From the NCBI GenBank assembly GCA_944389185.1, contig CALXLL010000001.1, positions 1 to 64,000 on the forward strand: a stretch of DNA of 64,000 nucleotides. Direction: 5' to 3'. The translations under genes were made by a program, and so were the position numbers. Below are positions 95-4,927 of this stretch, piece by piece; position 1 is the first letter of the stretch, and every line of letters begins with the position of its first letter. Below the pieces are notes generated by a model that saw nothing but the letters and a program-made list of their open reading frames with translations, was not told the origin of the DNA and searched no databases. The stretch is from an uncultured Alphaproteobacteria bacterium. GTDB lineage: Bacteria; Pseudomonadota; Alphaproteobacteria; Rs-D84.

Positions 95-1627
95 TTATTT
101 GTATAAGGATGTTGGGTCTTTAATTGCGTTGTTATATGCGGTTAGTCTTTCATTATCATTGTCGTCTGATCCTGTCAGATATTGAAAATCGTTTATGCTA
201 TTTTCTTGTGTATCTAGAAATAAATTTATTTCATTTACCTTTTTAAGTAGCTCATCTTTTTTTACATAAGAACCGTAAAAATATTCGTATGAATAGTTTT
301 CTATATCAATAAGATTTAGTTCAGAACGTATATTTTTAATTGTTTCTAGCATTTTGTCGTAAGAATATGAGCTCTTTTTCAATTTTTGTATGTTGTTAAT
401 GATACTACTAACTTCAGGAGAAGTTGGACGTCCATAAAAGAACAAATTTGTATGATTATTAAAAGTTTCTGCCTTTAATAATATATCTTTTTCTGTTTCA
501 GTGCGAATATACGAATCATTATTAGCGTAAGCATATTTATCTCCGAATGATAGTTGTTTTTCTCTACTTCTAGAATCAGATAGATTTTTATTGTTTTGCA
601 TATATTTTTGATTACATAAACAGTGTGCTAATAATCTGCATCTTATAGGTTCTTTATATTCTCTGCAGAATATTTTAGCTCTTTTTATTATTTCTATTGT
701 TTCGCGATATGAAAGCTTGGCTTTTTGTGCATACTCGGCAATCCATTTCTGTAATTCTTGTATGCTGTTGTATCTATTTTTATCATTAGATACATTTGTA
801 CCAAATTCTGAAAGTTTTACTCTGTCTGTGCATATTTTTTCATAATTTAATTCTGGTATAGTTATAACTTGATTTATAAATTTTTGTAAATAGTCTTCTT
901 TCCCAGCAAATGTACCAGACGAAACATTGTAGAAACCTTCTACATATGCATTTAGTCTTTCTGAGTTAATTGGTAAAATAAATATAAGTCCTGTAATGTC
1001 AAAAAAATGTTTTATCGTTTCTAAGACTTTTACTGCATAATCTGGACGGCATCTATCCAATTCGTCTACAATGAATACGAGTTTTTTATTTGGTAGCGTT
1101 TTTATAAAGTCTGCTAAAACTAGCTTTAATTCTAAAAATAAATCTGATCGTTGTTTTTCTGGAAATAGATTATTGATCAATTCTTCTCCGGAAAGTTCTG
1201 CTTCTATTTTGAATAATCCCCAAATACCAAATTGTGCTCTAATTTTTGTCGCTTTAGCTACAGATTCTAGAATATTTGATGTTAAGCTTGTCCCTTTTGC
1301 ACATTCTCTAGCAATCCAAATAATTTTTTCTGAAAGTACTACGAAAGGATCAACCATATAATCTTGTTCCCACACACTAAAATAAACAGTTTTAATATGT
1401 TTATTTAATAATATGCTAAATCTGCTTGCAAAATGGGTCTTTCCTGTTCCATAGGCACCATCTAAAGCAAGAACGTAAGGATTTTCTACTTTTTGTATAA
1501 ATTTTGATAGATTTTTTGCGAAATCTTTAATTTGTGGAGCAGTGTCATTCCATAATGATTTAGCAGATTTTAACTTTTTTTCTAGCTCGTTTGGTGGTAG
1601 GTCAAATATGTTTGCAATATCTTTCAT
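95..1627 (-). CDS. KAP-family P-loop NTPase
   Basis: A 510-residue protein if started at the ATG at 1627. An in-frame ATG at 1678 would add 17 residues that look non-coding. Walker A is GAYGTGKT at residues 57-64. Walker B is the KAP signature FIVDELDRCRPD near 185-196, followed by the typical A-x3-LE-x-IK-x2-F stretch. KAP NTPases (PF07693) are AAA-like ATPases often tied to membranes, phage exclusion (PifA) or plasmid functions. This one lacks the transmembrane insertion that many members carry, and the upstream co-directional gene supplies a separate membrane helix. Base composition is more A+T-rich than the neighbouring housekeeping genes, consistent with acquisition. The family call is secure; the role as a defence or membrane-linked ATPase is inference. 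Confidence 0.85.
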   Translation of the reverse strand: MKDIANIFDLPPNELEKKLKSAKSLWNDTAPQIKDFAKNLSKFIQKVENPYVLALDGAYGTGKTHFASRFSILLNKHIKTVYFSVWEQDYMVDPFVVLSEKIIWIARECAKGTSLTSNILESVAKATKIRAQFGIWGLFKIEAELSGEELINNLFPEKQRSDLFLELKLVLADFIKTLPNKKLVFIVDELDRCRPDYAVKVLETIKHFFDITGLIFILPINSERLNAYVEGFYNVSSGTFAGKEDYLQKFINQVITIPELNYEKICTDRVKLSEFGTNVSNDKNRYNSIQELQKWIAEYAQKAKLSYRETIEIIKRAKIFCREYKEPIRCRLLAHCLCNQKYMQNNKNLSDSRSREKQLSFGDKYAYANNDSYIRTETEKDILLKAETFNNHTNLFFYGRPTSPEVSSIINNIQKLKKSSYSYDKMLETIKNIRSELNLIDIENYSYEYFYGSYVKKDELLKKVNEINLFLDTQENSINDFQYLTGSDDNDNERLTAYNNAIKDPTSLYK

Positions 1628-1789
1628 GGTACTATCTTTATAACATGTTGATTTTATTGTATAAAACAAAAAAATCAACTTATCAATTAATATGATGACA
1701 ATATAAAACGCTTTTTAGTGTGTGCATAATTAACAAAAGTTTTAAAGCTATATACAAAAGTATTATTTATTGTAGAGTAACAGCAGTAA

Positions 1790-2719
1790 TTATATTGGTC
1801 GCATAATGTTTAATATTAGAGGACTTTTTTTCCCGTTTTTGATTGAGTAACCAGCTTCAATGTAAAATATTTTCCCTTCATTATCTATAGCTTCTTTAAA
1901 TTGGGCTTTAAAGTTTTCTATTACATTTAGAAGGTCTTCTGCATAATATACACGTTCAATATCATCATCTTTTTTTATATTTATATACTTTTGTTCTAAA
2001 TTGATTGAAACAACCCTATAATTTCCTCTTAATTGTTTTGCTTCAGGTGCTTCGGATGGTTTTCGTGGAAAACGTATTTTTTTTATTTCTCGTATTTCTT
2101 CACTTGTGTATTTTTCTCCTTGATACGTAATGGATGTGTCAATTTCTTCAAGATTATTTAAGTTCTCTTTTTCATATTCTTTTACGATTTCAGCAAGTTT
2201 ACTGTTGGCTAGTGATAGTTTATCTATCGCATTATTAATAAGATTATAGTTGTCTTTGTTTTTTTCATTATCTAATTTTTTCTCACGATATTCCATATAG
2301 CGTTTGAAAACCAACCAACCAAAAAAGCATAAAAGGAACGTAACAATAACACAAATTCTTTGTTGTTCTGGTATCATTTCTATGATCCTTTTAATCTGTT
2401 CTAGTGAATCAGCAGTAATTTCTGTGGAACCTTCTTCGACTTCAAAAGGGATCTCTAACAGTTGTTTTTCTTCTTTTGATAGTCTGCGAAGATCTGTTGT
2501 TTGATATTTTAATAAAGCCCCTATTCGATATACTAATATTTGATTATTAACAATCATTTTTGCGGCAGGAAGATTTACAGATTTTTTATATTTTTCGTAG
2601 TGTAAACTTAATTTGAATAAATCTGTGTTTTCTAAAATATCTTTTATATCTATATTTTTGTTATCTACAAAGTCCTGTAGAATTTTAAAAGGGTCGTTCT
2701 TTGCGATAATAGTTGCCAT
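1790..2719 (-). CDS. Single-helix membrane protein paired with KAP NTPase
   Basis: A 309-residue protein that I do not recognise as a named family. Residues 1-120 are soluble and charged. One hydrophobic helix lies at about 122-138, followed directly by a basic, Lys/Glu-rich stretch to about 205 that looks like a coiled coil. The C-terminal 80 residues look like a small beta-rich domain. It has no cleavable signal peptide. The start is supported by an AAAGGAA ribosome-binding site 8 bases upstream and by a promoter at 2765-2793. It precedes the KAP ATPase on the same strand with a gap of about 160 bases, so the two probably form one module in which this protein anchors or senses at the membrane (inference). 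Confidence 0.6.
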   Translation of the reverse strand: MATIIAKNDPFKILQDFVDNKNIDIKDILENTDLFKLSLHYEKYKKSVNLPAAKMIVNNQILVYRIGALLKYQTTDLRRLSKEEKQLLEIPFEVEEGSTEITADSLEQIKRIIEMIPEQQRICVIVTFLLCFFGWLVFKRYMEYREKKLDNEKNKDNYNLINNAIDKLSLANSKLAEIVKEYEKENLNNLEEIDTSITYQGEKYTSEEIREIKKIRFPRKPSEAPEAKQLRGNYRVVSINLEQKYINIKKDDDIERVYYAEDLLNVIENFKAQFKEAIDNEGKIFYIEAGYSIKNGKKSPLILNIMRPI

Positions 2720-2917: not shown

Positions 2918-2946
2918 TTGCATTTCGCATTATTTCATTATAAAAT
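2918..2946 (+). promoter_or_regulatory. aspS leader promoter
   Basis: TTGCAT (2918-2923), a 17-base spacer and TAAAAT (2941-2946) form a good sigma-70 promoter. It predicts a transcript starting near 2953, immediately before the first pairing segment of the T-box leader. Confidence 0.55.
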
Positions 2947-2952
2947 CTGTTC

Positions 2953-3157
2953 CAGTTGTCCCAACTTTTATGCAGTAGGGGCACCAGTTTATGGGCGCGT
3001 TTGCGGTGATATGACTGACAACCATGGAGTAAACTAAACCCGCGTTAAGTTATAAATCAGGGTGGCACCGCGCAAATTATTTGCGCCCCTGTAATGAATC
3101 TTTTCGGGTGCCGAAATCTTTGCTTTCGTCCCCGAATAAATAATAAAAGGGACTGTT
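2953..3157 (+). promoter_or_regulatory. T-box riboswitch leader of aspS
   Basis: The T-box core AGGGTGGCACCGCG lies at 3059-3072. It folds as a canonical antiterminator: AGGG (3059-3062) pairs with CCCT (3087-3090), a 7-base bulge TGGCACC (3063-3069) follows, and GCGCAAA (3070-3076) pairs with TTTGCGC (3080-3086). The bulge TGGC is complementary to an acceptor end GCCA, that is, discriminator G, which is what tRNA-Asp carries. Upstream, GTTGTC (2955-2960) pairs with GACAAC (3017-3022) as a possible compact Stem I. GAC at 3013-3015, or at 3017-3019, could be the Asp specifier. Downstream, mutually exclusive helices (3083-3088/3106-3111 and 3105-3108/3131-3134) lead to a ribosome-binding site at 3147-3152. 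There is no T-run, suggesting translational control. The antiterminator is clear; Stem I and mechanism are tentative. Confidence 0.85.
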
Positions 3158-4927
3158 ATGTTATCTTTGAAATCTAAATATAGAACGCATACTTGCGGCG
3201 AGCTGAATAAGCAAAATGTCGGCGAAGTTGTTACTTTGTCTGGTTGGGTGCACCGTAAACGAGATCACGGGGCTTTGTTGTTCGTTGATTTGCGCGATAA
3301 TTACGGTATTACTCAATGCGTGTTCGACGGTGGTAATGAAGCTTTAGAAAAAATTCGCCCGGAATCCGTTATTAAAATTACAGGTAAAGTAGTAGCCAGA
3401 GATAGCACCGCAGTTAACGATAAAATACCAACAGGTGAAATAGAAGTCCAAGCTGATTCTTGGGAGGTTTTGACTAATTCCGAAGTCCTTCCTTTTCAAG
3501 TATTCGGTGACGACGACTCTGTCGCAGAAGATTTACGTCTGAAATATCGCTATATAGATTTGCGCCGTGAATCTTTGCATAAAAACATTTTAATGCGTAA
3601 TCGTATGATTAAATTCATTCGCGATAAAATGTGGGAAATGGGTTTTTCAGAGTTTCAAACACCTATACTTACTGTTTCTAGCCCAGAAGGTGCCAGAGAT
3701 TTTATCGTCCCTTCACGCGTTCATCATGGTATGTTTTATGCTTTACCACAGGCTCCGCAACAGTTTAAGCAACTTATTCAAATATCCGGTTTTGATAGAT
3801 ATTTCCAAATCGCACCTTGCTTTCGTGATGAAGACTTGCGCGCAGATAGATTATTAGAGTTTTATCAGTTAGACTTAGAAATGTCTTTCGTTGATTTACC
3901 TGATATTCAAGCCGTTGGTAATACTTTATTACCTCAGATTATTCGCGAGTTCGTTCCGGATGCTAAGATATGTCCGGATATTCCGCATATAGCTTTTGAC
4001 GACGCTATGTTAAAATACGGAAGCGATAAACCTGATTTAAGAAATCCTATCATAATTTCAGATGTGACGGATATATTTAGAGGCTCTGATTTCGGAATCT
4101 TTGCAAATGCAATAGAGCAGGGTGCCGTCGTTCGCGCAATTCCTGCACCGGCATCAGCCGATAAACCTCGTTCTTGGTTTGATAAGCTTGGTGAATACGC
4201 CGTTAAAGAACTCGGTTTGGGCGGTTTGGGGTATATCGTGTTCGCAGATGAAGCAAAAGGACCCGTTGCTAAAAAGCTTGATGCAGAAAGAATTGCAAAA
4301 TTACGTCAAATAGCCGGTGATAATTCTTCTTTGTTCTTCGTTTGCGATAAAGAAGAAGCGGCTGCAAAAGCTGCTGGTAAGCTTCGTAATAAACTTGGTG
4401 ATGATTTAGGGTTAATTGACCCGAAAGAGTTCAGACTTTGTTGGATTGAAGAGTTCCCCTTCTTTGAAGAAGATGAAGAATCTCCAACAGGTATAGCTTT
4501 TACGCATAACCCGTTTTCTTACCCTATGGCAACTTTGGAAGAATTGAAAACTAAGGATCCATTGTCTATTAAAGCGGCTCAGTTTGATATGGTATTAAAC
4601 GGTGCCGAGATATGTAGCGGTGGACTTCGTAACTTTAATCCGGAAGTTATGCTGCGTTGCTTTGATATAACAGGTTATGACGAAGAAACTGTTAAACATA
4701 AGTTTGGCGGTATGTATACTGCTTTCCAGTATGGTGCACCACCGCACGGTGGATGTGCTTTCGGTTTGGATAGACTTGTTCAAATAATGTTGAATGAACC
4801 TAACTTACGCGAAGTAGTTCTGTTCCCGACCAATCAGCGCGGGCAAGATCTTATGATGGGAAGCCCAAGTGAAGTCACAGAACAACAATTACGAGAAGTT
4901 CATATCCAAGTCAGAAAGAAAAACTAA
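3158..4927 (+). CDS. aspS: Aspartate--tRNA ligase
   Basis: A 589-residue class II synthetase that charges tRNA-Asp in the cytoplasm. The N-terminal OB-fold anticodon-binding domain is visible (GWVHRKRDHG). The catalytic core includes FRDEDLRADR (motif 2), the bacterial GAD insertion domain in the middle, and the C-terminal motif 3 with FGLDRL. Length and features match bacterial AspRS. In the motif 2 loop the usual QPEF/SPGEF is LLEF, a small oddity. The ATG is preceded by AAGGGA with 5-base spacing, and a T-box leader ends immediately upstream, so expression is predicted to rise when uncharged tRNA-Asp accumulates. It is monocistronic, with a terminator at 4937-4966. Confidence 0.97.
   Translation: MLSLKSKYRTHTCGELNKQNVGEVVTLSGWVHRKRDHGALLFVDLRDNYGITQCVFDGGNEALEKIRPESVIKITGKVVARDSTAVNDKIPTGEIEVQADSWEVLTNSEVLPFQVFGDDDSVAEDLRLKYRYIDLRRESLHKNILMRNRMIKFIRDKMWEMGFSEFQTPILTVSSPEGARDFIVPSRVHHGMFYALPQAPQQFKQLIQISGFDRYFQIAPCFRDEDLRADRLLEFYQLDLEMSFVDLPDIQAVGNTLLPQIIREFVPDAKICPDIPHIAFDDAMLKYGSDKPDLRNPIIISDVTDIFRGSDFGIFANAIEQGAVVRAIPAPASADKPRSWFDKLGEYAVKELGLGGLGYIVFADEAKGPVAKKLDAERIAKLRQIAGDNSSLFFVCDKEEAAAKAAGKLRNKLGDDLGLIDPKEFRLCWIEEFPFFEEDEESPTGIAFTHNPFSYPMATLEELKTKDPLSIKAAQFDMVLNGAEICSGGLRNFNPEVMLRCFDITGYDEETVKHKFGGMYTAFQYGAPPHGGCAFGLDRLVQIMLNEPNLREVVLFPTNQRGQDLMMGSPSEVTEQQLREVHIQVRKKN

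What the first reader, a model, noticed from the sequence alone, without database searches (positions are those of the whole stretch)
3079..3152. Leader helices that could switch ribosome-binding-site access
Three mutually exclusive pairings can be drawn. ON: the antiterminator uses 3087-3090, so GGG at 3106-3108 is free and pairs with CCC at 3131-3133 (CGGG/CCCG plus CGAAA/TTTCG). OFF: GCGCCC (3083-3088) pairs with GGGTGC (3106-3111), leaving TCCC (3129-3132) to pair with the Shine-Dalgarno GGGA (3149-3152). No T-run follows, so control would be translational, known for some actinobacterial T-boxes. The candidate Asp specifier GAC lies at 3013-3015 or 3017-3019, with GTTGTC/GACAAC closing a compact Stem I.
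Basis: inference. Interest (0 to 1): 0.75.

Follow-up and report, generated by a model that had tools for sequence, protein, structure and literature searches.

The report
Minimal T-box switch on alphaproteobacterial aspS
The stretch before this gut bacterium's aspartyl-tRNA synthetase gene is an unusually small T-box, an RNA switch that reads whether tRNA is charged; it is conserved across a group of alphaproteobacteria in which I found no earlier report of T-boxes, and it lacks several parts thought to be needed to grip the tRNA.

Summary
The leader (about 2993-3157) upstream of aspS (3158-4927) is a real T-box riboswitch. It lies in a 0.8 Mb gut alphaproteobacterium close to Candidatus Enterousia. 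All 80 aspS leaders compared (window plus 79 relatives) share a kink-turn hairpin with a nine-base loop holding specifier GAC (64) or AAC (16), an AAGUNAUAAAU-like linker, and an antiterminator with bulge UGGCACC (80/80). The bulge fits the G73 of this genome's tRNA-Asp and tRNA-Asn. The helices covary strongly (0 of 500 shuffles). Compared with known T-boxes it lacks Stem II, the IIA/B pseudoknot and Stem III. Fuller T-boxes sit before aspS or a second AspRS gene in relatives.

Its OFF helix GCGCCC:GGGTGC scores poorly. I favour GGTGCC (3107-3112), invariant in 71 of 73 leaders, pairing with the bulge GGCACC (3064-3069), which would release GUCCC (3128-3132) to cover the Shine-Dalgarno GGGAC. 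Direct pairing of the antiterminator strand with the Shine-Dalgarno is a close rival. The proposed GTTGTC/GACAAC Stem I is wrong: GACAAC is the specifier loop. Everything is computational; tRNA binding and switching are untested.

The parts
2918..2946 (+). weak promoter-like TTGCAT-N17-TAAAAT
   Evidence: read by eye; below the threshold of the scan
2955..2986 (+). small hairpin ending GGGGCACCA (tRNA acceptor-stem mimic); not part of the switch, occupies the place where many relatives have tRNA-Thr(GGT)
2993..3041 (+). outer base of Stem I, GGG 2993-2995 with CCC 3039-3041
   Evidence: longer outer stems in relatives such as L049, L054, L083
2999..3034 (+). Stem I C-stem (2999-3004 with 3029-3034) and kink-turn (bulge 3005-3007, GA 3008-3009, GA 3027-3028)
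   Evidence: all 6 C-stem pairs change on both sides, 91% of cells paired
3011..3025 (+). apical hairpin: helix 3011-3013 with 3023-3025, nine-base loop 3014-3022
   Evidence: 2 of 3 pairs covary; loop pattern in 80 leaders
3017..3020 (+). specifier GAC (3017-3019) plus following purine A3020
   Evidence: GAC 64, AAC 16 of 80; next base A 77, G 3; tRNA-Asp anticodon GTC in own genome
3047..3057 (+). linker AAGUUAUAAAU, resembling the RRRxG...AA purine strings that flank Stem III, with Stem III missing
   Evidence: motif definition in PMC7583486
3058..3091 (+). antiterminator / anti-sequestrator: A1 3058-3062 with 3087-3091, A2 3070-3076 with 3080-3086
   Evidence: Rfam T-box alignment; A1 100% paired with 2 double-change pairs
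3063..3069 (+). T-box bulge UGGCACC; UGGC complementary to GCCA 3' end of tRNA-Asp and tRNA-Asn
   Evidence: 80 of 80 leaders; G73 read
3106..3112 (+). GGGTGCC: 5' strand of hairpin P4; GGTGCC (3107-3112) is the perfect complement of bulge GGCACC (3064-3069)
   Evidence: GGTGCC in 71 of 73, near-zero entropy while its P4 partner varies
3128..3134 (+). P4 3' strand / anti-SD (GUCCC 3128-3132)
   Evidence: complementarity to own SD exceeds all 2000 shuffles
3148..3153 (+). Shine-Dalgarno AGGGAC
3158..4927 (+). aspS, bacterial aspartyl-tRNA synthetase (589 aa)
   Evidence: NF001750 and TIGR00459 above cut-off; Pfam

Best explanation
A compact translational T-box riboswitch that senses uncharged tRNA-Asp (tRNA-Asn in a sub-clade) and raises AspRS synthesis. 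Shown by comparison: a kink-turn hairpin presents GAC in its apical loop, and a standard antiterminator with bulge UGGCACC follows after a short linker with no Stem II, IIA/B or III. Inferred: uncharged tRNA pairs its anticodon with GAC and its GCCA end with UGGC, stabilising the antiterminator; hairpin P4 then forms and the Shine-Dalgarno is open. When tRNA is charged, the bulge GGCACC is taken by GGTGCC (3107-3112), P4 opens, and its 3' strand GUCCC covers GGGAC, shutting translation. Because AspRS in these GatCAB-bearing genomes probably charges both tRNA-Asp and tRNA-Asn, either tRNA is a sensible signal.
For: Rfam T-box match with full antiterminator alignment. Bulge TGGCACC in 80 of 80 leaders, specifier GAC 64 / AAC 16. 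Covariation: 95.2% paired, 12 double-change pairs, score 0.489 against 0.195 shuffled, 0 of 500. Custom model: own-genome hit E 1.8e-25; 166 of 201 genomes of the order match. Sister leaders with Stem II-like and IIA/B-like parts before aspS or AspRS2 in the same order and before aspS in two other families of the class. G73 on tRNA-Asp and tRNA-Asn, A73 on most others read. SD accessibility 0.70 with the antiterminator formed, 0.18 with its 3' strand free. GGTGCC invariant while its P4 partner varies; in leaders without P4 the SD itself reads GGTGCC, GGTGCT, GGTGTC or GGTGTT, against 0 of 47 other window genes. P4-3':SD co-variation 0 of 2000. ON and bulge-OFF almost equal in the window, -27.8 and -27.6 kcal/mol. 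gatB present; no AspRS2/AsnRS-like gene found in own genome.
Against: Rfam score 29.3 bits is far below the curated 93, and weak Rfam T-box hits also occur in control genomes not expected to have T-boxes, archaea included. The bulge helix is invariant on both sides, so covariation cannot test it. Direct pairing of the antiterminator strand with the SD is as good or better energetically in 44 of 73 leaders. Seven short leaders lack P4 and have SD GGGACC or GGGTCC, not a bulge complement. The terminal pair of A2 is G-C in 80 of 80, not the G-U wobble named as aminoacylation sensor. No experiment.
Confidence: 0.72

Rival explanations
1. Same T-box, but OFF is direct: the 3' strand of the antiterminator (CCCU 3087-3090) pairs with the Shine-Dalgarno AGGG (3148-3151) while P4 stays folded as a spacer hairpin.
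For: It is the unconstrained minimum-energy fold and within 4 kcal/mol of ON or lower in 51 of 73 leaders. It can also serve the 7 short leaders without P4, whose SD accessibility falls when the antiterminator strand is free. AspRS2 leaders of the family use an obvious direct sequestrator, CCTTGTGTT with AACACAAAGG.
Against: SD variants co-vary with the P4 3' strand; complementarity to the antiterminator strand is no better than shuffled, though that strand is nearly constant, so the test is weak. It does not explain why GGTGCC is invariant.
Confidence: 0.35
2. One reading: GCGCCC (3083-3088) pairs with GGGTGC (3106-3111), freeing TCCC to pair with the SD.
For: Both strands are conserved; the SD:P4-3' helix co-varies.
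Against: Mean -20.5 kcal/mol against -29.6 for ON and -26.1 for the bulge version; never below ON.
Confidence: 0.1
3. Transcriptional T-box: a terminator forms before aspS in the OFF state.
For: Terminator-like hairpin 3102-3116 with TCTTTGCTTT; a true terminator T-box exists before tyrS in the same order (L125).
Against: The hairpin plus U-tract recurs in 8 of 73 leaders only; no long T-run before the start codon in most.
Confidence: 0.1
4. A decayed T-box remnant or chance T-box-like sequence without function.
For: Low Rfam score; Stems II and III absent.
Against: Kept in 80 of 80 relatives sampled with double compensatory changes and a specifier that fits the gene.
Confidence: 0.03

Closest known systems
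Actinobacterial ileS translational T-boxes with short Stem I (class II; Mycobacterium, Nocardia)
   Same: Kink-turn Stem I, specifier in an apical loop in the shortest forms, 7-nt UGGN-ACC bulge, control of SD access (PMC7583486, PMC10651847)
   Different: Here no Stem II, no IIA/B pseudoknot, no Stem III; [quoted passage not shown] Different gene, tRNA and phylum; A2 ends in G-C, not G-U.
B. subtilis glyQS-type transcriptional T-box
   Same: Stem I plus discriminator, no Stem II
   Different: glyQS type needs a long Stem I with the elbow-binding double T-loop motif and has Stem III and a terminator (partly from general knowledge); none is present here.
Fuller T-boxes in this bacterial order and in other alphaproteobacterial families (aspS, AspRS2, tyrS)
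   Same: Short kink-turn Stem I with GAC or AAC specifier in the aspS and AspRS2 leaders (TAC in the tyrS leader), UGGN bulge
   Different: They keep Stem II-like and CCCGUUA (IIA/B-like) parts and, for AspRS2, mostly a direct SD sequestrator; the window's leader has lost these parts.

Membership tests
T-box riboswitch (RF00230) | Antiterminator with helices A1, A2 and 7-nt bulge 5'-UGGN-ACC | tested here: met
   UGGCACC in 80 of 80, A1 fully paired with double changes
T-box riboswitch (RF00230) | Stem I with kink-turn | tested here: met
   N3 plus GA/GA flanked by covarying helices; as motif only, no 3D test
T-box riboswitch (RF00230) | Specifier codon matching the regulated amino acid, followed by a purine | tested here: met
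   GAC or AAC then A/G; AspRS gene; tRNA-Asp GTC and tRNA-Asn GTT in genome
T-box riboswitch (RF00230) | UGGN complementary to discriminator base of the cognate tRNA | tested here: met
   G73
T-box riboswitch (RF00230) | Rfam gathering score 93 bits | tested here: not met
   29.3 bits; none of 183 family genomes passes. A recognition threshold, not a structural feature
T-box riboswitch (RF00230) | Stem III with purine string | tested here: inconclusive
   purine-string-like linker kept, stem absent
T-box riboswitch (RF00230) | G-U wobble at the end of A2 (aminoacylation sensor) | tested here: not met
   G-C in 80 of 80; described as sensor in PMC7583486, whether universal among T-boxes was not checked, so I do not treat it as excluding membership
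T-box riboswitch (RF00230) | Binding of uncharged but not charged tRNA | not testable with these tools
   needs experiment
Class II (translational, short Stem I) T-box | Stem II with S-turn and IIA/B pseudoknot | tested here: not met
   only 27-34 nt between Stem I and antiterminator; present in sister leaders
Class II (translational, short Stem I) T-box | Switch controls access to the Shine-Dalgarno | tested here: inconclusive
   supported by folding and co-variation; not measured

The most novel reading that the evidence does not exclude
The smallest natural T-box known: it captures tRNA with only a kink-turn hairpin and an antiterminator, no Stem II, IIA/B or III, and uses the acceptor-binding bulge itself as switching strand, the mRNA carrying GGUGCC as an internal competitor of the tRNA 3' end; within one group the sensor has changed between tRNA-Asp and tRNA-Asn because one AspRS charges both.
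Probability: 0.4. Interest if true: 0.82.

Novelty: new variant of a known kind. Interest (0 to 1): 0.7.

Why it matters
T-boxes are described as largely Gram-positive; the survey read here lists Proteobacteria only through two Geobacter/Pelobacter leuA cases (PMC2494555), and I found no paper on alphaproteobacterial ones. A conserved T-box across an alphaproteobacterial order widens their range. The leader is also a natural deletion experiment: it shows which T-box parts can be dropped, and makes testable how a bare nine-base loop and a bulge can select and check a tRNA. The GAC/AAC alternation on an AspRS gene in GatCAB-bearing genomes suggests that such a synthetase can be regulated by either of its two tRNAs.

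Tried and rejected
Rfam at gathering threshold gave nothing here. Stem I as GTTGTC/GACAAC: not conserved. The AGTA hairpin 2961-2980 as a T-box S-turn (Rfam places it there): rejected, it is an upstream element that most relatives replace with tRNA-Thr or other sequence. Transcriptional terminator: 8 of 73 only. Complementarity of the SD to the antiterminator strand as a special feature of aspS: 9 other window genes match as well. Minimum-energy folding of 2953-3170 alone was uninformative, z -0.79. The upstream mini-hairpin was searched in viral contigs, no match. A model call failed on structure length and was repeated. Sherwood 2015 was not held.

Full report
Setting. The window is the start of contig C1 of a 796 kb genome, 96.9% complete. 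Its AspRS is 93% identical to uncultured gut Alphaproteobacteria, with named Candidatus Enterousia genomes among the near ones. A recent paper describes order Rs-D84 gut alphaproteobacteria with genomes under 1 Mb (PMC12306168); that the window belongs to that order is my reading. aspS runs 3158-4927 and passes the bacterial aspartate-tRNA ligase cut-offs. A gatB gene is present in the same genome (C1:91599-93089) and no AspRS2/AsnRS-like gene was found at E 1e-60. From known biology, such an AspRS would also charge tRNA-Asn; this is inference.

The observation. Rfam does not reach its threshold, but the permissive search aligns 2941-3093 to the T-box model at 29.3 bits with a perfect antiterminator. 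Because weak Rfam T-box hits also occur in control genomes, archaea included, I did not rely on that score.

Comparison. Eighty aspS leaders (the window and 79 relatives; L074 was cut off) all carry GGGTGGCACCGCG and a matching 3' strand. Read structurally, each has a C-stem, three bulged bases, GA, a short helix, a nine-base loop, the helix's other strand, GA (TA in a few), and the C-stem's other strand: a kink-turn hairpin. The base pair next to the tandem GA changes among U-G, C-C and A-A. In the alignment of 60 distinct leaders 95.2% of cells pair, 12 of 20 pairs show changes on both sides, and no shuffle or slide comes near. Bases 4-6 of the loop are GAC in 64 and AAC in 16, followed by A (77) or G (3). 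The bulge is UGGCACC in all 80. The genome's tRNA-Asp (anticodon GTC) and tRNA-Asn (GTT) both end in GCCA, while most other tRNAs read have A73. So both ends of the expected tRNA contact are present.

What is missing. Only 27-34 nt separate Stem I from the antiterminator. They end in AAGUNAUAAAU or similar, close to the RRRxG and AA strings that flank Stem III in known T-boxes (consensus), but no Stem III, Stem II or IIA/B is there. Nor can these parts lie upstream: in several relatives (for example L033, L037, L039) the CCA end of a tRNA-Thr gene lies a few bases before Stem I. In contrast, leaders of aspS in G176 and G177 (L003, L008) and of the second AspRS gene in other family members hold Stem II-like and CCCGUUA-containing parts. 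For that second gene 23 of 30 loci show the T-box core; those without it include truncated loci. Its specifier reads AAC in the Stem I sequences printed, and a direct sequestrator CCTTGTGTT/AACACAAAGG covers the SD in most of the printed leaders. The gene fits 'aspartate--tRNA(Asn) ligase', consistent with an Asn specifier. T-box leaders before aspS also occur in other families of the class (L122, L123, L124, L126), and one before tyrS in the order has TAC, UGGU and a terminator (L125). So the window's element is a reduced member of a wider alphaproteobacterial group. The compact form was seen only in family f1: a class-wide sample of 385 genomes gave strong hits only there, plus one weak hit to a fuller leader.

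How it switches. Downstream, 73 leaders have hairpin P4 (5' strand GGGTGCC or TGGTGCC) and 7 have none. If the antiterminator is formed, the SD is open (mean 0.70); if its 3' strand is free, the SD closes (0.18); 70 of 73 long leaders drop, and all 7 short ones. Three OFF designs were compared by forced folding. Direct pairing of the antiterminator strand with the SD averages -27.7. Pairing of GGTGCC with the bulge GGCACC plus P4-3':SD averages -26.1, and -27.6 against -27.8 for ON in the window. When only the bulge helix is imposed, a helix between the P4 3' region and the SD appears by itself in the five leaders printed.

Why I favour the bulge version. The P4 5' strand is almost invariant while its partner varies widely, as expected if it must also meet an invariant partner. 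In related leaders without P4 the SD itself reads GGTGCC, GGTGCT, GGTGTC or GGTGTT (L003, L190, L189, L031, L193), while 0 of 47 other window genes have such a motif. And P4-3' strands match their own SD better than shuffled ones (0 of 2000; relatedness is not removed). Against it: energies do not separate it from direct pairing, both strands are invariant, and the 7 short leaders do not fit. I hold T-box identity at about 0.95, translational control at about 0.8, and the bulge-competition route at about 0.5 with direct pairing at about 0.35.

Known or new. PMC2494555 lists Proteobacteria only through Geobacter and Pelobacter leuA; TBDB searched for translational T-boxes in Actinobacteria (PMC7778990); text searches found no alphaproteobacterial T-box paper, though most subscription journals are not held. 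The review PMC7583486 states that truncated Stem I barely binds tRNA without Stem II and names the terminal G-U of A2 as the aminoacylation sensor; here that pair is G-C in 80 of 80. These are the two sharpest departures and the reason for rating it a new variant of a known kind.

Noticed in passing
window 2955-2986: A 32-nt hairpin ending in GGGGCACCA, like a bare tRNA acceptor stem with CCA, sits just before the riboswitch. It recurs, with its promoter region, before aspS in six relatives (L038, L042, L045, L048, L072, L094) and once in this genome.
   Followed up: partly
L033, L037, L039 and others (46 of 80 aspS loci): A tRNA-Thr(GGT) gene lies upstream of aspS on the same strand, often ending a few bases before Stem I, suggesting co-transcription and release of the leader by tRNA processing; in this genome that tRNA is elsewhere (C3).
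   Followed up: partly
L159-L184: A second, archaeal-type aspartate--tRNA(Asn) ligase gene occurs in 30 of 173 family genomes, usually with a fuller Asn-specifier T-box and often a clear SD sequestrator.
   Followed up: yes
L125 (G199): tyrS in the same order has a T-box with TAC, UGGU and a strong terminator followed by a T-run: a transcriptional T-box in an alphaproteobacterium.
   Followed up: partly
L121 (G417): A T-box above the Rfam cut-off (110 bits) precedes a DAHP-synthase-like gene in another alphaproteobacterial family; possible transfer from Gram-positives or contamination.
   Followed up: no
window 95-1678 (-): Protein with P-loop GTGKTHF and VDELDRCRPDYAVKVLE, resembling KAP-type NTPases (from memory, not searched); next to it 1790-2719 (-) has no Pfam match.
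   Followed up: no
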